A program made the position numbers and the translations under genes. A stretch of 64,000 nucleotides of DNA from Alitta virens (lineage: Eukaryota; Annelida; Polychaeta; Phyllodocida; Nereididae): NCBI GenBank assembly GCA_932294295.1, contig OW028575.1, positions 15,008,058 through 15,072,057 of the forward strand. Direction: 5' to 3'. Under the pieces are notes generated by a model, which made no database searches, had not been told where the DNA came from, and saw nothing but the letters and a program-made list of their open reading frames with translations. Positions within the stretch are counted from its first letter, which is position 1; the number at the start of each line of letters is the position of its first letter. Shown one piece after another: positions 27,028 to 52,200 of the stretch.

Positions 27028-27033
27028 AGAATG
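27028..27033. repeat. Polinton target site duplication, left
   Basis: AGAATG immediately precedes the left inverted repeat and is repeated at 52195-52200. Six-base duplications are the established hallmark of Polinton/Maverick integration. Confidence 0.9.
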
Positions 27034-29693: not shown

Positions 29694-29716
29694 AGACCGA
29701 AACCTTAACACTTACA

Positions 29717-31296: not shown

Positions 31297-31326
31297 AAAG
31301 ACAAAAAAACAAGAAGGTCACCCGTC

Positions 31327-31791
31327 ATGTCGGCTTTCGATAAGAAATATTTCACCTTGGATGGCGGGTTAAGCTATAAGAAATTCCTGAAACATTTCAA
31401 AGACCAGGCTAAAGGTACACAGAAGTTGATACTACTACAAGATTCTGGCAGATCAGTAGATTCTAAAGGACCTTTTAAGACTCCCACTACCCATGGTTCT
31501 CTGGTGTTGGTGGACCTAGCCGATCACGTCGAAAAAAATGACAGTGGCCAGTTACCAAAAGTGGAGGTGGTTGAACCTACAGAGGCTGATAGGAGACGTG
31601 CCCTTGACCAGGTCCAAATCGAGGCTCACGATCGTAAAACCGCCACAGCAGGGCTTACTAAACCCACAGCAATTCCCAACGGTGGTCATTCTAAGACAGG
31701 AAGCCGGAAAGGACAGAACAGGAAACGTAAAAACGCCACTGCTTCCACGGCTAAAAAGGTTATAAAACGCGCAAAGGATTTTTTCGATTAG
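31327..31791 (+). CDS. basic C-tail protein, possible core or capsid-associated protein (154 aa)
   Basis: No family recognised. The first 60 residues are mixed, with a KFLKHFKDQAKG stretch. The middle is acidic (about 70-100), and the last 35 residues are rich in Lys, Arg, Ser and Thr (KGQNRKRKNATAS, then AKKVIKRAKDFFD), which could be a nuclear signal or DNA-binding tail. Its place between the penton-like gene and the major capsid gene suggests a virion protein, perhaps a DNA-condensing one. AATAAA at 31830-31835 would end its mRNA. Confidence 0.6.
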   Translation: MSAFDKKYFTLDGGLSYKKFLKHFKDQAKGTQKLILLQDSGRSVDSKGPFKTPTTHGSLVLVDLADHVEKNDSGQLPKVEVVEPTEADRRRALDQVQIEAHDRKTATAGLTKPTAIPNGGHSKTGSRKGQNRKRKNATASTAKKVIKRAKDFFD

Positions 31792-31829
31792 CGTCTCACT
31801 ATTTTACCTTAACACTTTTATTCACCAAG

Positions 31830-31866
31830 AATAAAGGTAATTAAATCTAAAAAAAAAAAAAAAAAA
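31830..31866 (+). promoter_or_regulatory. polyA signal followed by an A18 tract abutting the capsid ATG
   Basis: AATAAA at 31830, then 13 bases, then eighteen A residues (31849-31866) directly before the ATG of the major capsid gene. It resembles either a genomically encoded 5' poly(A) leader or the footprint of a polyadenylated RNA joined to the next gene. Confidence 0.5.
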
Positions 31867-33378: not shown

Positions 33379-33398
33379 TCAGTACCGGCCTATCCTTC

Positions 33399-34073
33399 AT
33401 GATGGAAGGAGTATGCACTCATAGATTTAAACTGCCTAAAAATATTCTACTAACCGGTTGTAGCCAGTCTGGAAAAAGCCAATTTATCAATAGATTGCTA
33501 TTAGAAAAAGAAAAGGTTTTCCACCCAACCCCGCAGAGGGTCATATACTGTTACACGGCATGGCAACCCTGTTACGATGATTTACAAAGCGCTCTGGCTG
33601 ACACCGTGGTTTTCAGGACTGACATACCCAGCACTCAAGAATTGACAGACCTGTGGGAACAGCAAAAAGTTGAAACCATTCTCGTGCTTGATGATAAGAT
33701 GTCATCTCTGAAAAACGACTCCGAAGGTCGTTCCATAGTAGACGTAGTCTGCGTTCTGTCTCACCATTGCCACATCTCCTGTCTCATCACCACACAAAAC
33801 CTTTTCCACAGTCAGATATTGCGAGAAATCTCTCTTAACTGTCATTACATCTGCCTCTTTAGAAACAACAGGAGTCACCTTCAGGTTAAAACCCTAGGCA
33901 TGCAGATGATGCCTCGCTTAACAGACTATTTTATGGATAGTTATGAAAAGGCTACGGAGAGAAATTACGGTTACTTGCTCATAGACCTATGTCCTGATAC
34001 TGACAAGAAATTAAGATTGAAATCTAACGTATTCCCCGGAGAAGATTTAACCGTTTATCTACCAAAAAAATAA
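33399..34073 (+). CDS. FtsK/HerA-type genome packaging ATPase (224 aa)
   Basis: This is the A32-like ATPase that pumps the genome into preformed capsids. Seen: Walker A GCSQSGKS at residues 20-27, Walker B ILVLDD at 94-99, and a TTQNLF motif at 131-136 matching the polar sensor of the family. The size fits Polinton ATPases (200-260 aa). The open frame also extends upstream to a GTG that overlaps the capsid stop, but the first ATG (33399) just precedes a conserved KLPKNILLTG strand, so I use it. It is the fourth gene of the capsid block. A T-then-A tract at 34099-34122 lies downstream. Confidence 0.93.
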   Translation: MMEGVCTHRFKLPKNILLTGCSQSGKSQFINRLLLEKEKVFHPTPQRVIYCYTAWQPCYDDLQSALADTVVFRTDIPSTQELTDLWEQQKVETILVLDDKMSSLKNDSEGRSIVDVVCVLSHHCHISCLITTQNLFHSQILREISLNCHYICLFRNNRSHLQVKTLGMQMMPRLTDYFMDSYEKATERNYGYLLIDLCPDTDKKLRLKSNVFPGEDLTVYLPKK

Positions 34074-34241
34074 TCGTTGTTATTTAGTTATTTATCTTTT
34101 TTTTTTTTTTAAAAAAAAAAGAATTAAGCCCTAACCATTATAATTAAAACCAACAGCATTAATTAACCCGCCATCAGTTGTATTTTGGTGATTGGACAGT
34201 GTGCATCTACGAGAAAAAAAACAAAAACATTTTTGTTAATC

Positions 34242-34574
34242 ATGGATATCTTAAAAACACACATGCCGTTTTTACAAGCCTTCCAACAAATGACTAATGA
34301 ACAACGCTCTTTCGTTATAAGAGGCTCTACAAAAGTGCAGGCTAAGCTGATCGCTGACATCGCAACTAATGTGGTAAACAAAGTGCTTAAAGTTTCAGAC
34401 ACTGATAAAATCCGGTTGAGAAGGTATAAATCCTTCATTAGGTTCATAGCCTCACAAGGGACCAGTCACGCGGAGAGAGTTAAAGCCATTAAAAGCAACC
34501 CACCAGCCGTGATCGCTCTAGTGCTAGCCACAGTCGGTAAACTAACTAGAATTATTAAACCTGGACAAATATGA
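34242..34574 (+). CDS. small helical Polinton protein (110 aa)
   Basis: The first ATG in frame gives MDILKTHMPF. The protein looks all-helical: an early segment with QRSFVIRGST, a middle IADIATNVVNKVL, a basic stretch IRLRRYKSFIRF, and a hydrophobic end VIALVLATVGKLTRII. Small proteins with this order (helix, N-V-L box, basic RRYK-like box, hydrophobic end) recur in metazoan Polintons and adintovirus-like elements. They have been suspected to be minor virion or membrane-active proteins; the assignment here is by recall and not certain. The stop overlaps the next start by four bases. Confidence 0.55.
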   Translation: MDILKTHMPFLQAFQQMTNEQRSFVIRGSTKVQAKLIADIATNVVNKVLKVSDTDKIRLRRYKSFIRFIASQGTSHAERVKAIKSNPPAVIALVLATVGKLTRIIKPGQI

Positions 34575-35122
34575 GTGAAGAAAATATTCTAATCCCGAAA
34601 TCACGATATGACAAGCTAGTAGCCAGGATGACACAACCCGTCAAAAATCTTACCCCATCCCCAGGCAACCGTAATGAAGACCACACCGGAATAGACCCGA
34701 GCGATGCCGATAGCCCTAATCAACCAAGAGGTCAGTCACCCGGTAAAACCACTCCAGAAGCACCCCATTCGCCAAAAAAATCACTTTACAAGGATACCAC
34801 ACCGGAGAAACCTGAGAAGCCTTACTCTCCCCAGAAACCCCAGAAAAAACCTCAGAAACCCCAGAAACCCCAGAAACCCCAGAAGTCTGACGGGGACCGT
34901 AGTGGTAGAACCCTGAAGGAGATAATGAGCAACCACGATGCCTTTCTACCACCGGGTATCGCCCTTAATCCCGAGACTACAGATTCTGTCAATCCTGCAG
35001 CAGTTAGAATAAAAAAAATTAAAAATAAAAGACCTTTAACCACTGATAACCGCCATAAAAAAAGCTCCGTTACGAGTAAAAAACCTTACTCAAAAGTGTT
35101 AAAAGAGTGGATCAGTCTATAA
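34571..35122 (+). CDS. Pro/Lys-rich low-complexity protein (183 aa)
   Basis: Not assigned to a family. The N-terminus has ILIPKSRYDKLV, which resembles the short helix opening many Polinton proteins of unknown function. The middle is disordered and Pro/Lys-rich with PQKPQKP repeats (about 88-104). The C-terminal 45 residues are basic and end in KVLKEWISL. It is translationally coupled or at least overlapped (ATGA) with the preceding small protein. AATAAA signals at 35228 and 35244 lie downstream. It may be a scaffolding or core protein; there is no direct evidence. Confidence 0.6.
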   Translation: MSEENILIPKSRYDKLVARMTQPVKNLTPSPGNRNEDHTGIDPSDADSPNQPRGQSPGKTTPEAPHSPKKSLYKDTTPEKPEKPYSPQKPQKKPQKPQKPQKPQKSDGDRSGRTLKEIMSNHDAFLPPGIALNPETTDSVNPAAVRIKKIKNKRPLTTDNRHKKSSVTSKKPYSKVLKEWISL

Positions 35123-35630
35123 TACGAAATGTAACTAGTTATTTTCTATTCGCTTTGTATAACTATATATATATATATATAAACGCCCTTATTTTTTGTA
35201 TACCGCACCGGTTATTGATAGATTATGAATAAAAATCAAACAAAATAAAAGCATAATTTATTTTGCTGAAAAACAAAAAGAATATCGTTTTGTATTACTC
35301 CGTTTTTGTTATTTCCTTACCGGCTAGATTTTTGTTATTATTAATTATTATTTTTTGTTGTTTTTCAAACGGTTACATAAAAGTGTCATCAATTCGTTTT
35401 CGTTTGAAAAAACCTCACGCAATCACGCATCACTAGTCCTAAGACGCTATGTCCAGCCATGTCCAACAGAGTCAAAAAAGTAACCGCTGATTGGATGGCC
35501 GGCACGTGCGCGCCACAAGACCGTGACATAACGTTAGGTATAAAAAGACCTTTCGGGGCATCGGGAGGGGTACTCCTTAGCTTTCTGACAAATTTACAAC
35601 AACCTTTTTTCACATCACCATATCCTTAAG
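35123..35630 (+). promoter_or_regulatory. polyA signals and TATA promoter of the second PC4-like gene
   Basis: AATAAA at 35228-35233 and 35244-35249 closes the capsid-side gene block. A new promoter then appears: TATAAAAA at 35539-35546, with a G+C-rich stretch after it and a plausible start about 30 bp downstream (35570-35578), leaving a 5' UTR of about 55 bp before the ATG at 35631. This is the clearest core promoter in the element. Confidence 0.65.
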
Positions 35631-38159
35631 ATGGCATGCGCTCAGGGAATTGTGAAGGGAGTACCCGGCGTCGGACTCAATGTGGACGAATCGGTGCAAG
35701 AAGGTTTAATCTCCAGCCAGGGGATGCGGTTACCCTATTCCGGGCTGTGGCACTTGGAGCTGTCACCCACTAAGCACGCCTTTCTGAGTAGAGGTGAAGA
35801 GCTGACCCTTTATGTAAAGGACTTCGGTGCGCAGGGTGACAGGTTGGTCACAGCGCGTGACTACGTTCAACTGGATCTAGAGCAGGTTGTGGACCTGATG
35901 TTTACCCTGGATGACCTGTTGTATACTGTGAGGAGGAACCAGATGCGTGAAGTAAGCTCCTTTTTTTTTTTTTTTTTAATTTTTTTTATTTTACGAAATA
36001 CATACTTTTCGTTTTAAGTCTCTAGTATACTATAAACTCTTTTAAAACGCATTAATAACTTTTAGCGTTAGAAATATCGGTTTGATAAGTAAGGCGGTAT
36101 ATTTTTCTATCCATTGCAGCCTTTTTTTAAAAAATCTTTAGTACTTTTTTTTTTTTTTTTTTTTTTTTTGTAGCACTAGATAAATCTTTTTAACCAGTAA
36201 GCGGGTATTAAGCGAGTATTAAGCCAGTATTAAGCTAGTATTAAGCTATTAAACCAGTATTAAGCTAGAATACTTTTTAAAAAAAATAAAAAAAAGCTAT
36301 AGTACACTATAAACTCGTATTAAAGTTTTCGTTTTAAATTATTTCAGCTGAGACGCAGGGAGCTCGCCATGGTGCAAACTATGCACGGTAAAGTATACAA
36401 TTATACCCAGGAAGAGTTAGAATCCCTTACAAACTTCCCAATACTACCGCCCAAGTTCAAGGACGTGCACCTCGGGAAGCTGCTTTTCGCCAGTGCTAAA
36501 GCTCAATTTAAGAGCGTGGAGCTGAGACAGTACCAAGTCCCGAATGAAAAGTTGCAGACCCATGGCATCGCTGCAGCCGTGTTGGGCAATGGTATTACCT
36601 TATACCACGGTGAATTCCTCAACCTGTGTAAAGGTCTACCAACCTTATTGGACCGCGTGGACATGGAAAATCGTTTACCCTGCGCCTACGGTCACTACAA
36701 CCGGGACGAACCGGATCAGGGGGAGAGCTGCAGCCACTGCTCCCCTACAGGGGAGGTAATCCATAAACTACCTCCTCAAGGTCTCTCGAAAAGATTCACG
36801 TACAAACCCCTACGTCCCGAACCATCAGACCCCGCCCCAACGGAAGAACCCCACATGGGTCTCGCCTCCATCCTGAGCGAGAAGGTGGTGACAGTGGGTG
36901 GGATTGCCAGGGGGGAACCCGCTTTAAAAGTAATCGCGGAGGCCGTGGCCACGTCAGCGCAGGCTGACATTTTGAACCAGGGTAGCGTGGTGATGACCAC
37001 CGCCGGGGGACGGAGTAATGAGGGGGCAAAAAAGAACTATCAGAACTCGCAGAAGACAAATCACGCATCACAACCCCCTCAGACCTCCAAAAACCTAGGA
37101 GAGAAGACCCCCCAGAGGACCTCCCAGAGGACCTCCCAGAGGACCTCCCAGAAGACCTCCCAGAAGAACTCCAAGAAGACCTCCCAGAAGACCTCCCAAA
37201 AGACCTCTCAAAATATCAGGTCGAAAGCCCCCAGCTCCATAAACGACTCCACTCGGCAGACCGTTCACGAATTAGAAGCTACATGGGGCAGTTGTGATGA
37301 CACCGTTCTCTTGCTGGGGGCATCTGTGGATTGCGAGGCATCGCCAATTCTTAGACCCCCTTCGAAATCCACCCTCGGAGTGAGTCTGGAAGCGGAATCT
37401 TCCGGCACCACCACCACCACCACCACCACCCAGCTTCAGCACCAAGGGCACCAAGGGCACCAAGGGCACCAAGGGCACCAAGGGCACCAAGGGCACCAAG
37501 GGCACCAAGGGCACCAAGGCAGGAGTAAGGTAAGAGTGTTGAAAGCCGCTCAACCGGAATCCATCATCACGCACACCAGTAATTACCATGAGAGCTCAAT
37601 CAACCTGGGTGCTAATCAGGTGGTGGTGTCCACCAACGGAGAACTGAAAAACAGGGGAAGCAGATTCGGTGATCAAAACCCACCGGAGAAACGCGTACGC
37701 CTAGAAGGGGGTTTTAAAGAAGATCGCGACCATAGCCCTATCGAGATACGCACTAGTACCCCCAAGAAAGGGCAGGAGAATTACTCCCCCATCAGCCCAC
37801 CCGAGTCTCCACTGAGCACCCCCTTAACCCAAAAAACACCCCCTAAACGCGTCAGGGCTACTAGACCCCCGCCCCCACTCAACCCCGGTCCTAAGACCAT
37901 GAGCAGGACGGGTCACGCACGGAAGAACCCATCAAAAAGCGAAATTACTCGCTTGGTTAAAAATGCTGACAGGATTTTCAACACCGATGCCACCCCCACC
38001 GGAAGACCAGTGCCCGCTACCCCCGCTGTACCGGGTCAAGGTATTGAAGACGATGAAGAAGAAGAAGAAGACGAGGTTGTAATAACCGCTGTAACCCGCC
38101 TACCTAAGCCGGAAGAGGACATCATAACTGTGGTAGATGAGTCTTTAATAGAGGTATAA
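35631..38159 (+). CDS. PC4-like protein 2 with repeat-rich tail (spliced, 710 aa)
   Basis: Exons 35631-35951 and 36348-38159, joined in phase 0. The 396-bp intron starts GTAAGC and ends in TTATTTCAG. Seen: first PC4-like unit at about 38-104 (HLELSPT, then LTLYVKDF, then DYVQLDLEQVVDLM) and second unit at about 145-210 (VELRQYQV...NGITLYHGEFLNL). Then PC-x3-H-x11-C-x2-C (C219, H223, C235, C238), as in protein 1. The rest is disordered: tandem SQRT/SQKT units, a Thr run, about eight HQG units, basic clusters (KRVRLE, PPKRVRATR) and an acidic DDEEEEEDE segment near the end. It is probably a nuclear regulator of transcription or replication. The PC4 match is by pattern and needs structure prediction. 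Confidence 0.6.
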
Positions 38160-39192
38160 TATAATATATTATACGGAGCGGAACTTTGCCCAGAAATTTT
38201 GAACTTTGTTGAAATATTTTTGAAGTAGTAGAAGTAGTGGAAGTAGCAGAAGTAATTATACGTATGGCTATGTATCATTACTTATCATTACGTGTCATTA
38301 GGTATTATGTAGCGCTACGTATCACTAGAAAAAAAAAGTAGCACTAGGTATCACGAGAAAAAAGAAAAAAAAAAAAAAAAAGTAGCGCCTCGAGCCTTAT
38401 ATTATACCGTAACTAGCAATATCTTGGTCTTTTCAGATGTCATTTCAGATTTTATCAAATATATAACAAAATGTATATATTTATATATAACTATACGGGA
38501 TGCCATCGGGATGTCGTATAATATTTTCCAAAAAATATTTGTATATTTGTATATATATTTATATATATATTAACTCATTTTATTTTCGCAATAAAACGAT
38601 ATTTTAAACCGCATTTTATGTCTTCTTCTTTTTTAATATTTTTTTAATATTATTTTAAAATATTTTAAAATTTTATTTATATATATATATATCTTATTTT
38701 AAAAATATTATAAACTCGTATTATTTCGCAAATGCACGCCCTTAGCAATAGGTAGCAATAGGTAGCAATAGGTAGCAATAGGTAGCAATAGGTAGCAGTA
38801 GGTAGCAATAGGTAGCAATAGGTAAGCGCGCTAGCACGCTAGCGCGCTAGCACGCTAACCTATAGCTAGCATGCCTGCCTGCCCCCCCTAGAGGCCCTGC
38901 CCCCCCTAGAGGCCCTCCCCCCCTAGAGGCCCTGCCCCCCCTAGAGGCCCTAAAAGAGGGGGTGGGGGGTGGGGGGAGGAGGGGAGGAGGGGAGGAGGGG
39001 GGAGGGGAGGAGGCAGGAGAGGAGGAGAGGAGAGGAGAGGAGGAGAGGTGGTGGGAGAGGAGAGGTGGTGGGAGAGGAGAGGAAGAGCTAGAGATACGCT
39101 AGAGATACGCTAGAGATCCGCTAGAGATCCGCTAGAGACGCTATTATTAAGAAAATGAAATACGCACGATATATTATTATTAATGAGACAAA

Positions 39193-39228
<36 letters not shown>

Positions 39229-40971
39229 ATATCGAGTTTTGTTTTCATAACGTCTGTCATAGACTCTGCACTCTGCGATACGCCGTATGATACGACGTAT
39301 GACACGACGTATGACACGACGTATGACACAACGTATGATACCGTACCATCTGTACCATCTGTACCATCTGTCAAAAACATAAAAATAAAAATTGACGCTT
39401 TCGTGTTGTTGTTTTTTTGGACCTATTGACATAGTATTGACATAGTATCGACATAGTATTGGCAAAGTATAAAATAAATAAATAAATTAATTAAAAACGG
39501 TGGTAATTAGTATATAAAATAACTAAAAAAAACGAGCTGTCAGGATTACTAGATTTACCTCGTAAGTCCCCACGTGGCGGCCATATTTGATTATGAAACT
39601 TCTGGAAAAAACTTTCAAATTTCTCCCCATCTTTTTTTGTCATGGTAAATCCGTGATAGACCCCAGGAATGGTACATCCGCTTGTTGTATACTAAACGAT
39701 GCTCCGTAACGTTAGGTATCCTATGGCGTATAGTTAGTAACCGTAGCGCGGTTGGAAATTTCAAAACTTTTCCAGGACCTTTTCCAGGGCTCTCCGGACA
39801 CCCTGCGCAACCCTGCGCAAGCGCTGAGGATGCTCTCCGAGTGCCCCAAAAAAAAAGCGCCAGATGGCGGTAGAGTACAGAGAATACAGCGGTGGTAAAA
39901 AAGAACCGCACGGTCTAGTGGCGACACCCCTGGGTCTTTTACTAACTAAAAGCCTCGAAAATAGTGGCTCTTGTTAAAATCGTAACTTCTCAACAGACCT
40001 GGAGAGGGCGACAGGTGCAACTACAGCTAAATTCTCAAACACTGACCGGTGGCTCCCCCGGTGGCTCCCCCGGTGGGGCCGGAGTTTTTCGCGCAGCGCT
40101 AATTAGCACTGTAGCGCTGTAGCACTGTAGCACTGTAGCACTGTAGTGAGACTGGTCGCTAGCATTTCTTTCACGGTTTGAGATTGGCAGAGGATAAGCG
40201 GGGCTATGATTGGTCATCGCGTCGTGCTCTCCGGTAGGTTGACTCGGACACGCCCCCAAACAATTAGCCAATTAATCACCAGAAAACAATCGGCCAATCA
40301 GAAAACGGTCAAGATCCTGACTGAAAGTCACGTGTTTATGGCGGCCAAGACCGACTCCTATGCGCTCGTGCGGAGGAAGGGACCAACTTAAGCGCTAATC
40401 TACGGGCTGTCAATGCACTGCCAATGAACTGTCAATGCGAGACCAACTCTCTCTAGTGCTAATCTAATAAAGTCACGAGGTCACCGAGTCACAACTGGGC
40501 TGGAGTGCGGCTGTACGTCTGTACGGCTATACGGCTGCGCTGCTCATAGATTAGCACGGCGTGGTTAAATTAGCGAGTCAGGCTTGGCAAGAGGCCAAGC
40601 TTGGCGTGGTTAAATTAGCACTAGCCGGTATTTAGTATTAAGGAGAGCTGGAATTAACTTTTAGCATTAGCGTTAGCGTTAGAAAAAAAAAAAAAAAAAG
40701 GAGCCGGCATCAGCCGGCATCAGGGCATCAGCCGGCATCAGGGCATCAGCCGGCATGGTTTAAAGGGAGGGGTTGATATGCAAATTACCCCTGACCTTTT
40801 GAGCTCTAATTAGTCACGTGACCCCTCCCCCCTCCTTGTAGGTTCTTTTATCGGCCGTTTTTTGAGACAATCGCCATTCAGAGGGGAAAAGCCTTAGGAG
40901 ACAGACCTGGGTCGTGAGTGCGTACGCGTGTATTGTCTCGGAAAAAAAAATCCACCCCCCACCCTGCAGAG
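38160..40971. repeat. 2.8-kb non-coding block dense in short tandem repeats
   Basis: In order: AATAAA near 38590; eight GGTAGCAATA units (38741-38824); a GCGCGCTAGCACGCTA palindromic cluster (38826-38860); four 19-bp CCCCCCCTAGAGGCCCTG-like units (38881-38951); a purine tract of GGGGAGGA type (38954-39084); five 11-bp GCTAGAGATAC units (39087-39141); an AAT run; 12-bp ATGACACGACGT units (39286-39340); CTGTACCAT units; ATTGACATAGT units (39424-39463); GTAGCACT units (40110-40146); and AGCCGGCATC/AGGGCATC units (40701-40757). CACGTG E-boxes lie at 39571, 40329 and 40815. No open frame looks coding. A replication origin or enhancer is possible; there is no direct evidence. Confidence 0.75.
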
Positions 40972-41625
40972 ATGGAATCGGTAGAATTAGCTGTACCAGC
41001 CAGATTTCCTAATCTGGACGCTATGATAGATTACGTGACGAATCGGCTAGACAGAGAAAGTGCTGAGCAGATCTTGAGCAGACATAGGGGGGTGCTCCTA
41101 CCGGTAGAGTTGGTGCAGTCTTATGAAATATTCAGAGAAAAGGAAATCAAGCACATCAATCACGTCAGGATGTGTATGAACGTGATAAACAGCGATACAG
41201 CTGTCAGTCTCCACGACCATAGCAAGACCGAGTTTTATTTCTTCATAACAGTATGCGCGTTTAGCATGAAAGATCATTGCGTTGTAGACGGGGAGTTGTT
41301 GAAGGAGATAATCAGAGAGCATCACCAGGCAGAAACCCACCACCCCGAGTTCGAGATTTATAATCCCGATAAAGAAATATGCTGGTTAGACATCTTAGAG
41401 ATGGCTGTAGATAGACTCAGTCGCAACCTACAAGCCAATGAAGGACAGTTTAACGCTGACCAGATCAGACGATACGAGCCTAATTTTGTGAAACATCACG
41501 ATGTCAGGATAGCGCTGTACAGGACCTTGGTTCCGCATTTGAAACCACTAGTTAAAGACAGATGGTTGCAAATTTTTGCGGCAGACTCTTTAGACGGCGC
41601 GGATAATTTTGTAGATACTGCCTAA
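40972..41625 (+). CDS. DUF5662/HD-like metal-binding protein (217 aa)
   Basis: The ATG at 40972 is the first in frame; the open frame upstream is only GTG-initiated. Seen: H61-x2-H64, LHDHSK at 80-85, HHQAETHHPEFE at 117-128 (H117, H118, H123, H124), then LDILEMAVDRLSRN at 139-152. This spacing (HD-x-SK, then a HH-P-E box, then a D-x2-EM-x2-D helix) is the signature that I associate with the DUF5662 family of HD-superfamily-like metal-dependent proteins. Possible roles include nucleotide or second-messenger hydrolysis in host defence evasion or dNTP control; neither can be told from sequence. It is the last rightward gene. AATAAA at 41759 is downstream. Confidence 0.65.
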   Translation: MESVELAVPARFPNLDAMIDYVTNRLDRESAEQILSRHRGVLLPVELVQSYEIFREKEIKHINHVRMCMNVINSDTAVSLHDHSKTEFYFFITVCAFSMKDHCVVDGELLKEIIREHHQAETHHPEFEIYNPDKEICWLDILEMAVDRLSRNLQANEGQFNADQIRRYEPNFVKHHDVRIALYRTLVPHLKPLVKDRWLQIFAADSLDGADNFVDTA

Positions 41626-42004
41626 ATCGAATGGACAAGAGTCTTGAAAAACTTTTTTTTCATCCCAGCCGTGAGCAATTATTTGAAATACGATAAAACA
41701 AATGACAACTACAACTAGTGATCATGGTTAAATGCATTCTTTTTTTTTTTTAATGATAAATAAAAAATATGATCAAATACTTCTCTCTCTTTTTTTTTTT
41801 TCTCTCGTAATATAATGCTATTTTAAGTAAAATCAAAAAGAAAAAAAAAGAAGAATAAGTGACATTATGTTCGCTCGTAATAGTAGGAAAGATACTGATA
41901 AAAAACATACTAAAACAATACATCTTTTAAAACGGTTAGGAGCGAGCTGACATAATACAAAACAAATATAATACAAAATAATACGAAATCACAATAAAAA
42001 AAAA
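41626..42004. terminator. convergent intergenic region
   Basis: Separates the rightward and leftward gene blocks. AATAAA at 41759-41764 fits the 3' end of the rightward DUF5662-like mRNA. AT homopolymer runs fill the rest. No clear polyA signal for the leftward gene was found in this stretch. Confidence 0.5.
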
Positions 42005-44624
42005 TTACTGTCTTTTGGACCTCAAGAAATGGTCATGGGTAGTGTTTGTGGTGGGGTTGGTGGATTGGGGGGTTAACCCGGAGGTGGTGGTTGTAGGGGT
42101 GAAACAGGTGCCCCCGGATCTAGGTTTCCACGGCGGTGTGGGGGTGCCACTATCCATCCACCTAGCCAATCGGTGGCCCGCTTGTAGGGGGGTGAAACTA
42201 GTGCTCATGGATCTAGGTCTCGATGGTGGTGGCGGTATGGGAGGGTTAATATCCATAGACCTGTTCAACAAACTGTTTCCCCGCAGGGGGGTGGACAACC
42301 TACCACCTATAGGGGTGCATCGATGCTTTGGCGGTATCTGTGGCGGTATTGGATAGGTGGAGCTGTTTCCAAGGGGGATCCTTACCGGTGAACGTAATGG
42401 GGAGGTCGAGCTGTCTCGAAGGGGGGTCCTCACCGGTGAACGTAATGGAGAGGTCGAGCTGTCTAGAAGGGGGGTCCTCACCGGTGAACACGCAAAGTCA
42501 CGGAGGGGGGCACTCTCGGTGTTACTGAAGGTGGTCCTAGTTTCTGGACGGGTGTTGAGCCCTACGTTCCTGGTAGTTGGCCGTTTTGGGGTGTTAGTGG
42601 CACTGTAGAGAACTGGTAGGAGTGAGAGAAAAAAAATATATATATATATTAGTTAAATCATAAGGAAAAAAAATTTAAAAAATTAAAAGAATAAAAATAA
42701 GGAATCGGATAGACCCACCACGGGTATGTTTTGTGGTCATAATATTTTCTATTTTACCTGAAAATTCTTCAGCTCTAGACATTGGAGAGGTGGAGCTGTC
42801 TCGAAAGGGGGCCCTCAAGGGTGAAGTTGCACAGTCGCGGTGGGGGGCACTCTCCGTGTTGCTATAGACGGTCCTAGTTTTTGGGCGGGTGTAGAGCCCC
42901 ACGTTTCTGGTAGTTGGTCGTCTGGGGGTGTTGGTGGAACTATTGCGAACTGGTAGGAGTGAAAAAACAAAAAAAATAAAAATAATAATAAAATAGTTAG
43001 ATAACTATATTAGTTAAATCGTAAAGAAAATAAGGAATCGGATAGATCCACCACGATTATGTTTTGTAGTCATAATATTTTTCTATTTTACCTGAAATTT
43101 CTTCAGATCTTGAGAAGAAAGCCTGCTGATCTTGTGGTCCAGCTTCAGCTTGTGGTCCGGCTTGTGGTCCGGCTTGTGGTCCAGCTTGTGGTCCAGCTTC
43201 AGCTTGTGGTCCAGCTTGTGGTCCAGCTTGTGGTCCGGCTTGTGGTCCGGCTTGTGGTCCAGCTTGTAGTCCAGCTTGTGGTCCAGCTTGTGGTCCAGCT
43301 TGTGGTGCAACGGGTGGTGCAACGGGTGGTGCAACGGGTGGTGGTGTTACGGGTGGTGGTGTTACCGGTGGTTCTGCCGGTGGTGTTACGGGGGGGTCAC
43401 CATCATCATTACATCTCCGGCACTTCTGAAAAATGATAAAAATATATTGTTAGCTTGATACAAAATATATATATATATAGATTTTATTGACATGTAAAAT
43501 ATCATAAGCGATACATATGTCATTCGGTTACAAGATAACATGAAAGAGACATTAATGTAAATACAGAAAGCAATAAAATTTCAATAATCAAGGTTCCAGC
43601 CACCAAGTTAACTTATAATAAGTGTTTAAAATCCGCATACGCAATAGAAAAAAAAATACAAGCCGCTAATAAAAACATTTCACTCTTAAAGTCCAAAACA
43701 TGACAAGCACATCATAACTAATAAACTAATAAACTAAATTAATAACTGTGTGGATACAGGAGATGGTTTTCTCTATAGTAAGCTAAATTCTTAATAGTGT
43801 GACCTATTTGATAATCGTTTTTATCAATTGCGGGGTGGAGAATAGGGAGCTGTCTGTATATAGTTTATTAATATGGTCATAGGTTTAGAGTACATAACGG
43901 TTATTGAGGTTGCTATATAGAACAACAAAACAAACCAAAACATAAAAACTAAATATATATATATATATATATGATGATAAATACTGAACTAGAGAATAAT
44001 ATATTTAGTAAAAGAATAGAATAATAGGGGTTAAATAATGAAAAATACCTTCCGAAGCCACAAGCACACGACGCCCAAGAGTAGGATGCATACAACGGCA
44101 ACAACGACAAGCAGGCAACCTAGAGCAATCACCAGCACGCTGTGGTGGGGCTCTCTAACCGTCCCGGTATAGGCTCCGGCAGGACCTTCAGTTGGTTCTT
44201 CAGAGGGTTCTCCGGAGGGCTCTTCGTACTGCTCTACAGAGGGCTCTTCAGACGGGTCTGAGGTGGTACCTGAGGTGGTACCTGAGGTGGGGACTTCGGC
44301 TGAGACGGTCGTCGGATGCCCCGGGGTTTTCGTCACATGACAGAGAACAGGCGGTTGCCGGTCAGGCGGTTGCCGGTGATGGTCACCCCTAGAGCAGAAC
44401 AGGGTACCCCTCATGTCTACCCCGGTGAGTAAAGACATCTCTCTAGACGTAAAGATGGGGGGTCTGGTCCTGGAAGACGGTTCTGTGCAGTCGGCCATGA
44501 GGCCCTCGGGGGAAGTGACGCACAGACAAGGCGGATCTCCGCAGACAGAAATGCCCATTTCGACTGTCGTAAAAAGACTTGAAAACAGTACCAAAAAAAA
44601 TACCGGCGACAAAAAAGCGTCCAT
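42005..44624 (-). CDS. spliced type I surface protein 1, long Pro-rich tail (569 aa)
   Basis: Four exons on the minus strand: 44624-44049, 43425-43092, 42949-42758 and 42612-42005. Phases match throughout (total 1710 nt), and borders are GT...AG. Exon 1 gives a signal peptide, a Cys module (C-x4-C-x-C, ADC, then VDMRGTLFC, 25-75) like an LRRNT cap, a Ser/Thr/Glu/Pro stalk with SGEPSEEPTE repeats, and a membrane helix (about 162-188) ended by LWLRK. Exon 2 opens KCRRC and encodes PPVTPP and then about fifteen PQAG repeats. Exon 3 and the start of exon 4 are duplicates of each other, each with TNTP-x-RPTTRNVGL, and the remainder is Ser/Pro/Arg-rich. Topology implies a cell-surface or virion-envelope protein with a long cytoplasmic tail. 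Function is unknown. It is related to the protein at 45273-46736. Confidence 0.7.
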
Positions 44625-45272
44625 ACTCCTCGAATTCTGTGGGTAGACTAATTTTAATTTAAGACGATTTAAGGAGCGTGAGAATTTCTTAACAGAGTCT
44701 GGTGACTCTTTTCTGTAGGGTTATGTAAGATTATGTAAGATTGTTAATTGATTGGAGATCGAGTGCTTGCTTTTGTTCTCTTTTGTTTTTGCACAGGTGG
44801 GGGGGGGGAAAGTGTTATATAATCTAGTAAAATAGCACAGATGTAAATTTTGTTTTTTGAAACTAGAACGAAAATATATCTTTATTAAAATACTTTATTA
44901 CAATGTTTATTTTATTTATTTATTTATTTTTTTATTTTTTTTTTTTTTTTACAGAGAGCGTAAAGTATGACAATTTAATACTACAAACCATTGCAATAAT
45001 AATACTACGAGCGGTTACAACAATAATGACATTGACAATTTAATACTACAAACCGTTGCAATAATAATACTACGCGCGGTTACAACAATAATGACATTGC
45101 TAATAGTAACTACTATGTATGATTATATTTTAAATAAGCTTAAAAGAAAGGGGCAATCAGGCGACTGCTAAATTTTACTTTAAAAGCAAAAAAAATAAAT
45201 AAATAAAATTTAAAAATTAAAATTATGGCTAAAAAATGTATTTAAAATTATGGCTAAAAAATGTATTTCTCA
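44625..45272 (-). promoter_or_regulatory. promoter region and 65-bp direct repeat between the surface protein genes
   Basis: On the minus strand a TATA-like TATATAA lies at 44821-44815, about 190 bp upstream of the start at 44624. A G run (44801-44808) is next to it. A 65-bp unit is repeated in tandem at 44969-45033 and 45034-45098 with three or so differences. TTTATT runs near 44907-44928 give AATAAA on the minus strand, serving the 3' end of the gene at 45273. Confidence 0.55.
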
Positions 45273-46736
45273 TTAGACGGTGGTTGTGCGGAACTGGCAA
45301 CTTCCGGTTGTGTCACAGCTGATGTGATGGCTGGTTAGGGGCGGTTCTGGTGAAGATCTCCTCCAGAACCTCTTGTAGATGCAACACATCTGTAACAAAA
45401 TAAAATAAAATAATACGATGTGTTTTATCTCAGTAATGATGGCGGTAAGTTATATATATATATATATATTAAAATACTCACTATCACGATGCATTGTACG
45501 GTAACCACCAAAATGAAGGGTGCTATAATAAGCATCAAAATGAGGAGTGGTGATGATATGACCGATGATGCGGAGATCACAGGTGTGACATCATGGGCAC
45601 TTGTACTAGAGGTGTTATAAGTGTATGGTTGCACTGTAGATGTAGATGTAGATGTAGAGTCTTTTCTGGCTGTAGTGACTTCATTAGTGGTGGTGAGAGT
45701 GCCTGTGAGAGTGTCTGTGAGAGTGCCTGTGACTGTGCCGGTGACTGTGTCTGTGACAGTGTCTGTAACTCTGTCCGTGTCTGTGACTCTGTCCGTGACT
45801 CTGTCTGTGTCTGTGACTCTGTCTGTGTCTGTGACTCTGTCCGTGACTGTGACAGTGTCTGTGACAGTGTCTGTGACAGTGTCTATGACTCTGGTTGTGA
45901 CTGTGTCTCTGACTCTGTCTATGACTCTGTCTGTGTCTGTGACAGTGTCTGTGACTCTGTCTGCGACTGTATCTGTGACTCTGTCTGTGACTGTACCTGT
46001 GTCGGTGTTGGTGTCAGTGTTGGTGTCCGTGACAGTGTCAATACCGGTGTAAATGACGGTGTCATCAATAGTGGTGTGTTGATAAATAGGGTTAGCCCGG
46101 GTAGAGTGAATAGAATCGACTGTATATTTAGTGACCACTTCATCGGCCTTGGACAATGTTGTAAAATCTTCAGTTGTTGTTGAACCAGTGGCGGTATTGT
46201 CCTGTAGCGTAGTGTCCCCAGTTTCGCCGGTTTGGCTGGTGCTCCACGGCTCAGTCACAAATTCAAACTCTGATACGGTCACAGATGCAGTCTCCGATGT
46301 AGTATCCGGTGCAGTATCTGACCCAGTGTTTAGTCCCCGGTGACTATCCCTCTCATCTGTCTCACCATTTTGTTGGTGATTTCCAGAATATTCTTCTGGC
46401 TCTACAGAAAAAATAGATTGTCTTAAAAAAAAGTTTTTTTCCCCATATGGGTAGAAGGAAAAGCAAATATTAATAGAAACTCTTACCAAAATTACACAAT
46501 ATGTATCCAGATCTCATGGCTCTCTTTCTGCAAAAAGGCGTGCCAGTCATGTCGATAAATTGTACATCAGCGTGTGAGGCGAAGTACGGTGGTAGTGCGA
46601 GGTCCGTATAGGTGCAATCTACTTCTATTTTACCAGTAGCATAGCGGGTGCAGATACACCCCTGACAGGTGTACAGATAGTAACCCATACAAATCCCGTG
46701 TAGTAGGGTAATTGTAATAATAATGAGAGAGTACAT
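45273..46736 (-). CDS. spliced type I surface protein 2, VTDT stalk and PDZ-ligand-like end (428 aa)
   Basis: Three minus-strand exons: 46736-46487, 46401-45482 and 45389-45273, with phases 1 and 0 consistent (1287 nt in total). Exon 1: signal peptide (1-17), then C-x2-C-x-C, VDC, LPPYF, FIDMTGTPFC, ILC. Its cysteine order and the V/I-DM-x-GT-x-FC box match surface protein 1, so both share one LRRNT-like module. Exon 2: Thr/Ser/Asp-rich stalk, mainly VTDT/VTDR units (about 225-320), which should be heavily O-glycosylated, followed by a membrane helix. Exon 3 gives a 38-residue tail starting MCCIYKRFWRR (possible acylation) and ending TTTV, which fits a class I PDZ ligand. A surface role is inferred. 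The sequence does not tell attachment protein from receptor mimic. Confidence 0.72.
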
Positions 46737-47001
46737 CTCGAAACTTTTCTACTCTTATGCCTAGTTACACTACTTAGTATGAAGAGTGAGCATTTGACTC
46801 TTCGGCATACATCGGCCAGGAAAATTAGATTTTTGGCAGAGGAATGAGCTGTTGATAAGTGTTGATATAGTGTTTATTTAATACGGAGAGAGTCTTCTAA
46901 TACAAAATGGAGACATTATACAGTATTGAAAACTACAGACATGTACAAAAATAGGTCACATTTAAAGAATATATATATTTATATATATTTTTTTTTTTTT
47001 T
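46737..47001 (-). other. intergenic region between polymerase and surface protein 2
   Basis: On the minus strand AATAAA at about 46876-46871 could end the polymerase mRNA. The remaining 135 bp would hold the promoter of surface protein 2. No clear TATA was seen apart from ACTATATC near 46867. Confidence 0.45.
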
Positions 47002-47910
47002 CTAGCGAGCTGGTGCGACTCCCTTGTAACCGTAAGGCATAGATACATAGGTACCCGGTGGGACCACTCTTTTAGTGAAAACTTTTCTGTAAACCTTGGA
47101 GAATGGTCTTTTGTATATGATACCGGTGTACTTAGTCCTAGTAATCTGACTGGATAATGGCGTCCTAACATGGTCAAGCTCCTCGCGGATTATTTTCTTT
47201 ACAACGTCAAAGTCTAGTACACTAGAATTCTTGTAATTAAGACTTATCCCCTTGAGTTTGAGGGCTTGTTCGCCATTATTGAGTTTGTAGGAATAAGACT
47301 TTGGTCCTGATGATGCAAAGGTTTTGATGAATGTACCGGGCGGTAATTCGTCGGTGAGATCGCCTAACAGGTCACCGGTGGTGAGCTTTTTGTTGGTACG
47401 CTTATCTTGAGCGTATATCAGAGAGTCTGTATCCATGTAAGCTATGGAGTGCCCCACACACTCCAGGGCCTTGTAAAGCTTCAGTCTACCGTAGGTGGTG
47501 GTCAGCACACCTATAATGTCTGATTGAAATACATTATCTTCTTCAAAGGTGTCTTTCAGCTTAATATCTATTGCGATTATAGCGTCATTTATTGTGTGAA
47601 AGTCTGTGACATCCTTGGCGGGGTCGTTCCGGATTCTGGCCAGTTCCAGTTTAGTTTTGACAAATACAGTCTGAGTTTTGTTCTGTCTCTCGCAGAATTT
47701 ACCCCAGCAGGAATTGAGGTAAAGCTTTGCCACCAGTCTGAGACCAGGATTTTTGCATATTTTGTCTTTGTCCAGGGTGATTCCTTGATTGGTGCTGTAG
47801 TGGTCAATGTACTTGTCCTTTTCTTCCTGGGTTGTAACATGGGGTGGGTAGCCAGAAGCCTTGAATAATATATTTTTTATTATATATAAGTTGTATTTTA
47901 GGTGATAATT

Positions 47911-47956
<46 letters not shown>

Positions 47957-50900
47957 AAAGAGAAACAGAGTTAAAAGAAAAAAACTAACCTCTTGTTTGA
48001 TTTTAAGAAACATGGTGACATACTGATTGAAGAGCCCACCCTGATCAGTTTCTTTATTGTATTGCGTCATCTCGGGGTAATGGTATACCTCATACACTTT
48101 CAGTATCTTGTATCCTCTTGATATGGCGGTTTTTATTTCATCAGTGGCCCAGGTAGCTGTGAGAGCTCTGGCTGCGCAATCGCAATTACACTGTTCTTGG
48201 TTCTCAGTCTCGCAACAAAATCTACATAGGGGGAACATGAGTTTGCCATTGCACCTGTAAGGTAGTACGGGTATGAATAGGTCTGGTGGGGGGAGGATCT
48301 TGACCTTGGCAACACCTGTGTATGGTAGCAATGATTGGTCTATGACTGCGGGATCGGTGAGAATGATAGCATGTGTGGCTGGGTAACTGCCAAACCAGTT
48401 CACATAGGGGTATAAGCTCTGAAAAACGATACGAAAAAATATATATTAAAGTGTGAAATAAGTTATTTTAGCCAAAAATAAATAAATAATTAATTAGAAA
48501 AATTGTCTTTTACGCAAAAGTCTAGGTATCTCATTTCTTCATCGGGGTCGCAGTCGTAATAAAGACGTATGGGTTCAGTCCTACCACCGTACAGAGCATC
48601 CCTGATCCTGAGAGGCGGTGGCACATCAAAGTTTTCCACAAATAGTTTCAGATCATCATCACTCTTGACCATTCTGTCCCATTCGCACTCCCAAATAGTT
48701 TCGTGGATAAGACCGGTATCCTGAATTTTTTTCTCTCTAAGTTTTGTCATGCTGTGGAGTTGCTCCATGTTGAACCTGGTGTGCGGGTCTCGCACGTGTC
48801 TGGAGGGTATACAACCGTGACCATGCCATCGGCATCCGTAGAAATCAAATATTTTTCCAGTTGAGATGTCATGCCCATCGGCGTAGAAATTGGTGTTTGG
48901 TATTTTATACTCGCCACCATTTCGTGCGTGCTGTAATCGCCTACCCAATTTCTTACCCACCCACTCTAACCACATAATGGACTTGAGGCTGTGATTGATG
49001 TAACGCCCATAACTACGGGGTGGGGGCTGGGGTAGTTGGGATTTTACAAATTTACTTTCGGCAATATCTTCAGCATCGATGATCTGGCCATTATCAGCGC
49101 GTGACCACACCCCTGCTTTTAGATTCCCCTTCAATTGGTCACCGTCTTGGAGCCGTAAATCGTGCTCTTCGCTCATGGTGAGCTGTCTTATGATCTGCAT
49201 TGCACTACTGGCCAGGGTGACATGGCTGAAGACATCAATGGGGGGTGACTTTGCACCGGGCACGGTAGTGGCAGTCTTTATTAGGGTTCTGAATTTGGTA
49301 CATGCTTCTCTGAGAACCTTAACGTCAGCTCTGGTGTATTCCAACATTTCTTTTTGAAAGTCAAAGACAGAATCTTTCTTCAACTCGTACCACTTCAGAA
49401 ATTCCTCCCTGTTTTGTCGGGACATGAAGTCGGGCATGAAATATTCTTGAGCAGGCCATGGACCTACGAAATTGAAATTTTCTTGACAGTTGAAGAGATG
49501 AGGAAAATCTCCCTTTTTTATCTGAGATTCTAGTGCTAGAGCGGCTGGTAACTTCCGTAAAGCCATGGGTAGGAAATTGAGGCTGTCGATAAAGTTGATC
49601 CCTAATCCTGCAGAGATGTGCATCTTCATTATCTTGGACCCACAATATATCACCTGGGGTGTGATGGTGTTGTTCACGCAGTAATTAAGAATGAAGTGGG
49701 CATCAAAGGCCTTGGCATTGTGAGCTATGCACGTGAAGTTCTTGTGCATAGGGGTGAACAACCATTGACAAAATTCTTCAGTGGTTTCCGGTCCTTTAAA
49801 GACTTTCTCCCTGAGCCCACACTTCCCATTATTGCAAAGCTGTGCATAATCACCGTGCTTGTCTTTCTTTGAACAGACCTTGCATCTATCCCCGCAGTTG
49901 GAGCATATAGCATCATCTGACCATGCGTCATTCTCGCATTCATCACACACCGATTGACAGACTAGGAAATTAGGGCAGAATCTTTCCATACCGCAGTATG
50001 GTCTGTGACAGTTGCGACATTTCCTGCAATGAGGGCATAGTTGGTCAGGGAAACAATCCGGGCAGTCTTTCCTAATGACATTCCTGTAACCTTCCTGACA
50101 CGCCATCTTGGTGTCTTGCGAGGTCTCAAAGTCATAGTACAGAAAACGACCGGAGGTTATTTTGGGTTGTCTAATCCTGTAATAGCATAAGTGCTCACCG
50201 GTGACATATCTTTTACATTGGTTACACAAGTATTCACCGCAAGTGTGCTTGTTGATATCCCTTTTTGTCCTATTGAGCACCACGTGGCAGTCAGTGCACC
50301 TGTAAAATGTGTCACAGGATGATGCCCCTTTATGCTGACCGGCTAATGGACCTCGTTTGTGTGTTAGGGGGGTCTTGTGAGCCTGGTAACATTCTGCATT
50401 TCTGCAAGTGACGTTACAGTCTTGACAAATGACCCCAGACCCGACATATGCGCATTTATCTCGCTTACACACTATGCAGCTGGCTGTGCAGGTATGATTC
50501 TTGCTGCGTCTACAATACCATGTAAAGCAGTGGGTACATAGTGACTTGTAAGGTAACAATCCTTGTATGTTCACAATGCTGTGAAAGTGAGAATCCTTCA
50601 GGTACAAATATATTTTTTTCTCCCTGTCGCTATATCCTGTGTAACAAACTTCGTTAAGAAGCTCTACTGAAATTACTATTATCTGCACGTTTAGATATTC
50701 CTCGAATAGGTACAAATCTCTAACCATGACTGGTTCTTCTAATGATAAGCCAACTTCTCTTTGTAATTTTAAGGCTTGGGATTTTTGTGAATTGTCTTCG
50801 AGGCTTCTGGAGCGAGCCTTGTTTATGAAACATTTGAACTGATTTCTAGGCATCCCTTGAAGTTTTGCCATGCAGGTAACTATGGCTCTTGCGGCGCATA

Positions 50901-51554
50901 TATTTTCATTTTCGATTGCTGGAATGAACACTATGGACCTTTTAGTCTTAGCGGAGCACAGCTGGGACTGGTTGTCAGTATTGATAATAGGTGTAGGACC
51001 CCCACCTCTGTCTTCCTTTTGCAGAGTGCCCACTTTGACCTGGAATGTTTCGTCGGTATCAATGTCCTGCTTAGAGTTTAAAACGGCCTCGAATCTGTGG
51101 TGATAAATATATATATATAACAATTATGACTAAATAATAACAAGGATAGGTTATTAGTTCTATAGGGATAATGAAAGAATAAAAGGAATAAATTTTTTTA
51201 TATTTTTTTTACAAAAAAGATTTACCTGGCCATTATAACATCGGCTGTAATATTTCCCCGGGGTTGCAGATGAATAGTGATAGGTTTATCCAGACTCCTG
51301 TGTTCAATTGACATTCTCATCTTGTCACCATCTTGGTAATTTTCAGATGCCTGGTTGAGTATCTCGTCAAACATGCCGTGTAAATCGTCTTTGAACTCGG
51401 ATATCTTGGAACGAGATATATCGTCATTAAATTTTGCTTTGAAGGTATATTCCTCGACACCGTACTTGATCACCCTCTTTTCATTAATCTTCTTGATATT
51501 GTAGGGTTTAGGCGGGGTGCCCCCACCCTGTCTAGGTCTTTTGTTAGGTAACAT
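47002..51554 (-). CDS. pPolB: protein-primed DNA polymerase B in four exons (1398 aa)
   Basis: Exons 51554-51226, 51094-48514, 48418-47990 and 47859-47002 on the minus strand (4197 nt), phases 2, 0 and 0, all GT...AG. It replicates the element from protein-capped ends. Seen: N-terminal region with DKPITIHLQ; residues 174-283 resemble an OTU-like module (NICAARAI...DSHFHSIV); Cys/His-rich zinc-finger tracts at 296-405 and 454-535; exonuclease motifs ExoI DFE (D431, E433), ExoII NAKAFD (to D574), ExoIII YTRAD (Y696, D700); a GCRWHGHGC segment (863-871); polymerase motif A D968-F-C-S-L-Y-P; motif B KLYLNSCWG (1158-1166); motif C YMDTDS (1254-1259; D1256, D1258). Intron 2 falls inside motif A. 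Intron 3 has a very long T run on the coding strand. All catalytic residues are present. Confidence 0.93.
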
Positions 51555-51809
51555 TATTCCGTGTAGTATTCATCCATATTCCGTGATGTCTAAGTAGGGA
51601 ATGCTCTCTGGGGAAAAGGAACAGTTGTAGGTTCCTATTTCGTGGCATTTGTAATTAAGGTGAAAAAAAGGGTTACACCAACTCACCCTTGACTAAGTGT
51701 CAGGCGATGTGAATGACACGCACCCTGAACAAGTAGCCAGTAGTGCCTGAATGAAAGCGATAATAAAATTTAAATATCCTAACGGATATAACGATTAAAC
51801 TGTTAATGG
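51555..51809 (-). promoter_or_regulatory. polymerase upstream region
   Basis: Lies between the polymerase ATG and the right TIR. No clear TATA is present. The part at 51735-51809 is a diverged second copy of the inner TIR sequence (CAGTAGTGCCTGA and TAACGGATA words), so the promoter may lie in the TIR itself. Confidence 0.45.
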
Positions 51810-52194
51810 AACAAGCAGCCAGTAGTGCCTGACTGCACGCGCTTACCACCTTGTCACGGATAGAAAGATTATACTGTTTACTGTTAATGTAACGGTGACA
51901 TACATTTTGATTAGCATTTTGATTAGCATACCGGTACATTTAACGGAAATAAGTCCGTTGAACCGTGAAGTGCAATTATATAGGTCAGGGGTACATTAGA
52001 TAATTACCTATCTAATTACCTATCTAATTGCCTATCTAATTAGACACCAATTATAGGTAATTAGACCCCCTAATTAGACCCCCCAATTAGACCCCCCAAT
52101 TAGACCCCCTAATTAGACCCCTAATTAGACCCCAATTAGACCCCTAATTAGACCCCTAATTAGACGATTCCATAAGGTGTCTTATACTACTACT
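51810..52194 (-). repeat. Polinton right terminal inverted repeat
   Basis: Reverse complement of the left TIR, ending CTTATACTACTACT. It carries one more ACT triplet at the tip than the left end, slightly different numbers of CCCCTAATTAGA units, and lacks the 28-bp segment of the left TIR. The mirror TATA-like element is at 51976-51982. Confidence 0.9.
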
Positions 52195-52200
52195 AGAATG
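52195..52200. repeat. Polinton target site duplication, right
   Basis: AGAATG, identical to 27028-27033. Confidence 0.9.

What the first reader, a model, noticed from the sequence alone, without database searches (positions are those of the whole stretch)
42005..46736. Pair of spliced, paralogous type I surface proteins carried by a Polinton
Two adjacent genes share a signal peptide, an LRRNT-like Cys module with a V/I-DM-x-GT-x-FC box, a Ser/Thr-rich stalk and one membrane helix, but differ in tail: a very long Pro-rich multi-exon tail or a short tail ending TTTV. Core Polinton genes do not include surface glycoproteins. They may be entry or attachment proteins, decoy receptors, or signs of an enveloped stage.
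Basis: partly seen in the sequence, partly recalled or inferred. Interest (0 to 1): 0.88.

Follow-up and report, generated by a model that had tools for sequence, protein, structure and literature searches.

The report
Paired membrane-protein genes in Polintons
Many giant virus-like jumping genes in this animal genome carry, next to their DNA polymerase gene, one or two related genes for proteins that look built to sit in the cell's outer membrane, which hints that these elements have a stage in which they act at cell surfaces.

Summary
The window contains a complete Polinton (27034-52194, TSD AGAATG). Downstream of PolB, on the same strand, lie two predicted spliced genes: B (exons 46736-46487, 46401-45482, 45389-45273) and A (44624-44049, 43425-43092, 42949-42758, 42612-42005). 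Each has a signal-peptide-like start, the same roughly 60-residue Cys module, a Ser/Thr-rich stalk, one membrane helix and a tail.

The module is a family in this 671-Mb genome: 150 matches scored (capped list). 116 of 150 have a listed PolB within 8 kb upstream on the same strand; none has one solely in another arrangement. Of 20 diverged loci fetched, 18 hold two or more codirectional module ORFs, some broken. Nine module positions are invariant in 25 aligned members, splice donors recur, and dN/dS is below 1 for A, B and a tail exon. B tails ending -TTV and some A tails ending -TPV (PDZ-ligand-like) are conserved.

No significant Pfam, NCBIfam, PHROG, PDB or protein-database match was found; LRRNT kinship is only suggestive. 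The likeliest role is a cell-surface receptor or adhesin pair of the infected cell. Virion attachment is a live rival. An envelope or fusogen is not shown.

The parts
27034..52194 (.). Complete Polinton carrying the pair; TIRs begin AGTAGTATAAGACACC; 6-bp TSD AGAATG at 27028-27033 and 52195-52200 (right end has one extra ACT triplet)
45273..45389 (-). Gene B exon 3: short cytoplasmic tail ending RTTTV (class I PDZ-ligand-like)
   Evidence: RTTTV in 15 of 15 close copies (one is the window itself), followed by a stop in 14 of 15 (lost in L018); RITTV and a stop in L031 at 58% tail identity
45482..46401 (-). Gene B exon 2: Thr/Asp-repeat stalk (38% S/T) and one membrane helix
46487..46736 (-). 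Gene B exon 1: signal-peptide-like segment and Cys module; donor TTTTG|GTAAGA
   Evidence: dN 0.30, dS 2.14 against L042
44049..44624 (-). Gene A exon 1: signal-peptide-like segment, Cys module, S/T/P/E stalk, membrane helix; donor CGGAAG|GTATTT
43092..43425 (-). Gene A exon 2: Pro-rich tail start with (PQAG)n repeats
42758..42949 (-). Gene A exon 3: S/T/P/R-rich tail exon; phase 1 on both sides; duplicate of the start of exon 4
42005..42612 (-). Gene A exon 4: last tail exon, 15 SP/TP sites, stop at 42005
48490..51123 (-). PolB, largest piece; the pair lies downstream on the same strand
   Evidence: Pfam PF03175 E 7.7e-25
47978..48424 (-). PolB middle piece, collinear with the unbroken relative P0003
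47002..47862 (-). PolB last piece, its stop 265 bp before the ATG of B
31867..33378 (+). Major capsid protein of the same element (label recalled)
   Evidence: 27% identity to an L001 protein, E 4e-55
29690..30847 (+). Integrase (rve, chromo) of the same element

Best explanation
A and B are functional, selected genes of a Polinton lineage and form a paralogous pair of type I membrane proteins that enters the secretory pathway and is displayed at the surface of the infected host cell. SHOWN by sequence: the shared module, one membrane helix, recurring splice donors, position downstream of PolB, purifying selection, and conserved PDZ-ligand-like C-termini in one member of the pair. INFERRED: the disulfide-bonded module at the tip of an O-glycosylated stalk binds a ligand on another cell, on the virion or on the partner protein, while the tail docks to host PDZ/SH3-type scaffolds and places the protein at a chosen membrane site. 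It would thus work as a receptor or adhesin pair that aids attachment, egress or cell-to-cell spread of the element's particles, rather than as a fusogen.
For: Family: 150 scored module matches in the genome (of 410 candidates), 15 at 89-100% identity and the rest at 34-53%. 116 of 150 have a listed PolB 0-8 kb upstream on the same strand; none has one solely in another arrangement; these are 36 + 76 = 112 PolB places. All 20 fetched diverged loci have PolB upstream (19 inside the stretch; L045's at 7.1 kb), and 18 of 20 hold two or more codirectional module ORFs, some of them broken. Nine columns are invariant in 25 aligned members. The donor AAG|GT sits just behind the membrane helix in 14 of 14 A-type genes examined and the donor G|GT behind the module in 11 of 14 B-type genes. 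dN/dS median is 0.11 for A (6 of 36 pairs kept by the dS filter) and 0.32 for B (22 of 28). Window against L042: B exon 1 dN 0.30/dS 2.14, p 1e-7; tail exon 3 dN 0.33/dS 1.19, p 2e-4. Tails: RTTTV in 15 of 15 close copies with the stop kept in 14, RITTV-stop in L031, -TPV-stop in 7 of 20 fetched diverged loci.
Against: No transcript, protein, localisation or ligand data. No significant relative of the module in any library searched, so function rests on architecture alone. The structure models failed (pLDDT 44 and 47). Several copies are broken (for example L042 A, L043 B, L018's B stop). One module ORF (L037, 290-800, plus strand) runs against the neighbouring PolB. The window's A tail does not end in a PDZ-like motif. 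Membership of the virion was not testable.
Confidence: 0.5

Rival explanations
1. Virion attachment proteins: A and B sit in a membrane of the Polinton particle (an outer envelope or a lipid acquired at exit) and bind the receptor of a new host cell, with another protein doing the fusion.
For: Signal peptide, stalk and helix as in viral attachment proteins; conserved next to PolB; precedent of a putative fusogen in nematode Mavericks (PMC10680173) and a candidate envelope glycoprotein in an adintovirus contig (PMC11071296).
Against: No fusogen was recognised in this element (Pfam of the ORFs tested); the long or PDZ-ligand-like cytoplasmic tails are unusual for a pure spike (recalled); Polinton capsids are thought to be naked icosahedra (recalled).
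Confidence: 0.25
2. Immune or signalling modulators: the pair mimics host LRRNT-type or mucin-like receptors and acts as decoy, superinfection-exclusion factor or signalling rewirer at the cell surface.
For: Receptor-like layout with long S/T/P-rich tail (18 [ST]P sites in exons 3 and 4) and conserved PDZ-ligand-like ends; weak LRRNT resemblance to platelet GPIX (E 0.62); paralogous pair with different tails.
Against: No significant homology to any host receptor family; no sign of positive selection in the pairs tested (highest ratio 0.71).
Confidence: 0.2
3. Captured host genes carried as passengers without a role for the element.
For: Polintons can carry cargo genes (PMC10680173).
Against: Recurring position and order next to PolB across diverged lineages, purifying selection, and 116 of 150 matches beside PolB; no clearly cellular copy was seen in the 20 fetched loci.
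Confidence: 0.04
4. Gene-finding illusion in low-complexity DNA.
For: Stalk and tail are repetitive and antisense frames are also open there.
Against: Module outside the repeats, invariant cysteines in 25 members, dN/dS below 1, recurring donors and conserved tails.
Confidence: 0.01

Closest known systems
Nematode Maverick fusogen (Widen et al. 2023; seen only through the meeting report PMC10680173)
   Same: A membrane surface protein carried by a Polinton/Maverick, implying a step at cell membranes
   Different: That is a putative viral-fusogen-like protein; A and B have small Cys-module ectodomains, no match to a fusion family, occur as a spliced pair and have host-scaffold-like tails
LRRNT capping domains, for example platelet glycoprotein IX
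   Same: C-x-C ... DC ... L..P spacing (alignment) and a following (V/I)D(M/L) box; type I membrane protein (recalled)
   Different: No Pfam LRRNT hit; PDB profile match only E 0.62; extra invariant GT-x-(F/Y)C and usually a further Cys; no leucine-rich repeats
Viral membrane proteins with C-terminal PDZ ligands (rabies virus G, SARS-CoV E; recalled)
   Same: Membrane protein whose last residues fit a class I PDZ ligand
   Different: No sequence relation claimed; here the motif is in one member of a pair and binding is untested
Candidate envelope glycoproteins of adintoviruses (Adinto14876, PMC11071296, passage only)
   Same: Surface protein in a Polinton-related animal virus
   Different: No sequence was compared; the passage cites Widen et al., so it is probably fusogen-like (inference)

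Membership tests
Polinton/Maverick | Terminal inverted repeats | tested here: met
   27081-27358 against 51856-52133, 93%; ends at 27034 and 52194
Polinton/Maverick | 6-bp target-site duplication | tested here: met
   AGAATG on both sides, one extra ACT triplet at the right end
Polinton/Maverick | PolB and retroviral-type integrase | tested here: met
   PF03175 E 7.7e-25; rve E 2.5e-11 with chromo E 2.7e-5, the latter just below its cut-off; protein priming not tested
Polinton/Maverick | Major and minor capsid proteins | tested here: met
   27% and 24% identity to two L001 proteins, E 4e-55 and 4e-9; the names MCP and minor capsid are recalled, no library named them
Polinton/Maverick | Packaging ATPase | tested here: inconclusive
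   ORF 33375-34073; Pfam AAA_22 E 1.3e-4 and FtsK E 0.0048, both below curated cut-offs
Polinton/Maverick | Adenain-type cysteine protease | tested here: inconclusive
   The putative L001 protease (recalled label) gave no match in the window at E 0.1; a spliced or diverged gene is not excluded
LRRNT domain (PF01462) | Match to the family profile | tested here: not met
   0 of 25 module members at E <= 1; A and B none at E <= 10
LRRNT domain (PF01462) | Fold of a beta hairpin capping LRRs | tested here: inconclusive
   Models show short strands but pLDDT 44 and 47; GPIX match E 0.62
Viral membrane fusogen (gB/gp64 type) | Large fusion ectodomain matching a fusion family | tested here: not met
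   A ectodomain about 135 aa, B's beyond the module is a T/D-repeat stalk; no Pfam fusion family
Type I membrane protein | N-terminal signal peptide and one membrane helix | tested here: met
   Hydropathy only; no dedicated signal-peptide predictor was available
Class I PDZ ligand | C-terminal [S/T]-x-hydrophobic, conserved | tested here: met
   For B and for 7 diverged A tails, not for the window's A; binding itself not testable

The most novel reading that the evidence does not exclude
A whole clade of animal Polintons depends on a dedicated pair of cell-surface receptor-like proteins, new to science, that plugs the element into host PDZ/scaffold networks and mediates attachment or cell-to-cell spread: these Polintons would be viruses with an extracellular or contact-dependent stage, not merely transposons.
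Probability: 0.35. Interest if true: 0.92.

Novelty: new variant of a known kind. Interest (0 to 1): 0.77.

Why it matters
Whether animal Polintons are transposons or viruses with an extracellular stage is an open question (recalled). A membrane-protein module kept beside PolB at 112 listed PolB places of one genome, under purifying selection where tested, is hard to explain for an element that only moves inside a nucleus. It gives a concrete handle: two proteins whose location, partners and presence in particles can be tested directly, and a motif ([VI]DMxGTx[FY]C with flanking cysteines) for finding the same cassette elsewhere.

Tried and rejected
Shared dyad AGAGT...ACTCT upstream of A and B (chance sharing 108 to 390 of 20,000 window pairs): rejected as a conserved element, since it is present upstream of only 1 of 26 relatives. 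Shared 8-mer upstream: not unusual, 91 of 300 random pairs.

Searches without a significant match: protein database with A residues 20-100 and with the A2 alignment, both limited to relatives sharing exact words and of similar length; viral contigs with B, PolB, capsid, PolB profile, A2, A and A5; PHROGs, NCBIfam, Pfam, PDB profiles (5jla, an oxidoreductase, E 0.012 with the two-row profile fell to 0.44 with 25 rows and is taken as chance; the top PDB rows, proteasome subunits at E 0.27-0.32, match 17 residues only).

The cap forbade a rerun with 25 members.

B's own genome search did not complete. The host was not identified: named PolB relatives are from Ruditapes (37% identity, 98% coverage), Gigantopelta (32%, 77%), an ant (25%, 96%) and a fish (37%, 18%). 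Contigs L001-L003 showed no module (best E 3.8, motif scan empty).

Papers: ten searches, whose listings named no report of this family; only open-licence PMC is covered. Passages of three papers were seen; no paper was read whole.
Full report
What is there. The window is part of a 671-Mb genome (G000:C3:15008058-15072057). Between 27034 and 52194 it holds a complete Polinton: inverted repeats of about 93%, ends AGTAGTATAAGACACC, and a 6-bp duplication AGAATG on both sides, with one extra ACT triplet at the right end. It encodes an rve-chromo integrase and PolB, a capsid protein 27% identical to that of another Polinton contig, a minor-capsid-like protein and an ATPase-like ORF. PolB lies in three collinear pieces separated by 89 and 115 nt relative to the unbroken relative P0003, so introns are likely there too. 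Most of its nearest relatives are metagenomic proteins without an informative name; the named ones are from Ruditapes (37%), Gigantopelta (32%), an ant (25%) and a fish (37% over 18% of the query).

The two genes. Downstream of PolB on the minus strand come B (46736-45273) and A (44624-42005). Every predicted intron is GT-AG and all frames fit. B: signal-like segment, module, Thr/Asp-repeat stalk (38% S/T), helix, tail MCCIYKR...RTTTV. A: signal-like segment, module, S/T/P/E stalk, helix, then a tail of about 377 residues rich in Pro, SP and TP. Exons 3 and 4 of A begin with duplicated sequence in which changes are biased to synonymous sites (dN 0.16, dS 0.47; Fisher p 0.010; the other two frames hold stops and give ratios of 0.95 and 0.70). 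The A/B module similarity is significant: E 9e-5, 2 of 20,000 shuffles. A poly(A) signal lies in A's intron 1 (43864 and 43483) but none within 770 bp of the long form's stop, so a short-tailed A may also be made.

The decisive step: the rest of the genome. A search with A's module gave 150 scored matches out of 410 candidates, a capped list: 15 at 89-100% identity, the others at 34-53%. With capsid positions (85 loci), 22 of 150 module matches have a listed capsid gene within 30 kb, including all 15 close copies; 21 of the 85 capsid loci have a listed module match. I fetched 20 stretches of 10 kb around diverged matches, chosen to represent groups. PolB is present in 19 of 20 (in L051 it is rearranged); the twentieth has one 7.1 kb upstream. 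18 of 20 loci hold two or more module ORFs on one strand, downstream of PolB (three in L053; L048's two are identical; several are broken or fragments, for example in L042, L043, L046, L051, L052 and L053). The exceptions are L045 (one) and L037 (one on each strand). With two genome-wide PolB lists (138 and 100 places, both capped), 116 of 150 module matches have a listed PolB 0-8 kb upstream on the same strand, and none has one solely in another arrangement. The remaining 34 include five matches at loci where PolB was read directly (L041, L051, L053). Conversely, in the first list 18 of 18 PolBs at 90% identity or more have a module match downstream, 3 of 6 at 60-89%, 2 of 5 at 55-59% and 13 of 109 below 55%; in the second list 76 of 100 do.

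Conservation. In 25 aligned members (chosen for diversity from the module ORFs) C33, C35, C46, P56, F58, M71, G73, T74 and C77 (A numbering) are invariant and D45 nearly so. Gene structure recurs too: in 14 of 14 A-type genes examined an AAG|GT donor follows the membrane helix, and in 11 of 14 B-type genes a phase-1 G|GT donor follows the module (the script looked for a limited set of donor words; L040, L044 and L052 gave none). dN/dS medians are 0.11 for A-type exon 1 (6 pairs with dS 0.05-1.5 out of 36) and 0.32 for B-type (22 of 28); the other pairs were dropped by that filter and pairs are not independent. Between the window and L042, B exon 1 has dN 0.30 and dS 2.14 (p 1e-7), and A's tail exon 3 has dN 0.33 and dS 1.19 (p 2e-4), although L042's own A exon 1 is decayed.

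Tails. RTTTV ends B's tail in 15 of 15 close copies (one is the window itself); the stop follows in 14 and is lost in L018. L031 ends RITTV-stop at 58% tail identity. In 7 of the 20 diverged loci an A tail ends GK-x-TPV. These fit a class I PDZ ligand (motif recalled). The window's A ends RSKRQ and does not.

What the module is. Pfam gives no significant family for any of 25 members (best E 0.11). PDB profile search gives nothing significant; one of its six rows is the LRRNT region of platelet glycoprotein IX at E 0.62 (rank 5; that the region is an LRRNT is recalled). AlphaFold on two-row alignments failed (pLDDT 44 and 47), so the shared-fold test was not decided.

How it most likely works. 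Inferred from architecture: the module at the tip of a mucin-like stalk binds a ligand; the helix anchors it in the infected cell's membrane; the tail couples to scaffolds. Attachment, egress or spread is the most economical purpose for a gene pair kept beside PolB. A fusogen is unlikely on size. A virion-borne attachment role and an immune-modulating decoy role are the main rivals; a passenger gene or a gene-finding artefact is disfavoured.

Known or new. A putative fusogen in nematode Mavericks (PMC10680173, passage; original not held) and a candidate envelope glycoprotein in an adintovirus contig (PMC11071296, passage) are the nearest precedents in kind. The listings of ten paper searches named no report of this family. 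I rate it a new variant of a known kind: a Polinton-encoded surface protein, of a family with no significant match in the libraries searched.

Noticed in passing
window 27930-28301 (+) and 28417-28863 (+): First ORF matches the first half of the PC4 coactivator profile (E 0.0033) behind a weak CARD match (E 0.031), both below curated cut-offs; the second ORF looks like the PC4 second half by eye (no Pfam hit), suggesting a spliced CARD-PC4-like gene near the left end of the Polinton.
   Followed up: partly
window 40918-41625 (+): ORF with DUF5662 (PF18907, E 1.7e-7, above cut-off), convergent with gene A.
   Followed up: no
G000 genome-wide: At least 85 capsid-gene loci (1393 candidates) and two capped PolB lists of 138 and 100 places, many with long open frames; ten places share the top score at 100% identity to L034's PolB piece, which suggests very recent Polinton bursts.
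   Followed up: partly
L001, L002, L003: Contigs filed under bacterial genomes (a Bacteroidia MAG, the Solemya velum symbiont, a TM6 MAG) carry Polinton-like PolB and are probably eukaryotic or viral contamination; L001 also carries a TATA-binding-protein-like ORF 7189-7725.
   Followed up: partly
L046 around 4756-4876: B's last exon directly abuts an A-type gene, as if a deletion had fused the two neighbours.
   Followed up: no
window 44625-44740 (-) and upstream of A in L041, L043: The word CTTACATAATCTTAC occurs upstream of A in the window and in L041, with one mismatch in L043; perhaps a promoter element.
   Followed up: no
L048 4129 and 5821: Two A-type genes of identical translation in tandem 1.7 kb apart.
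   Followed up: no
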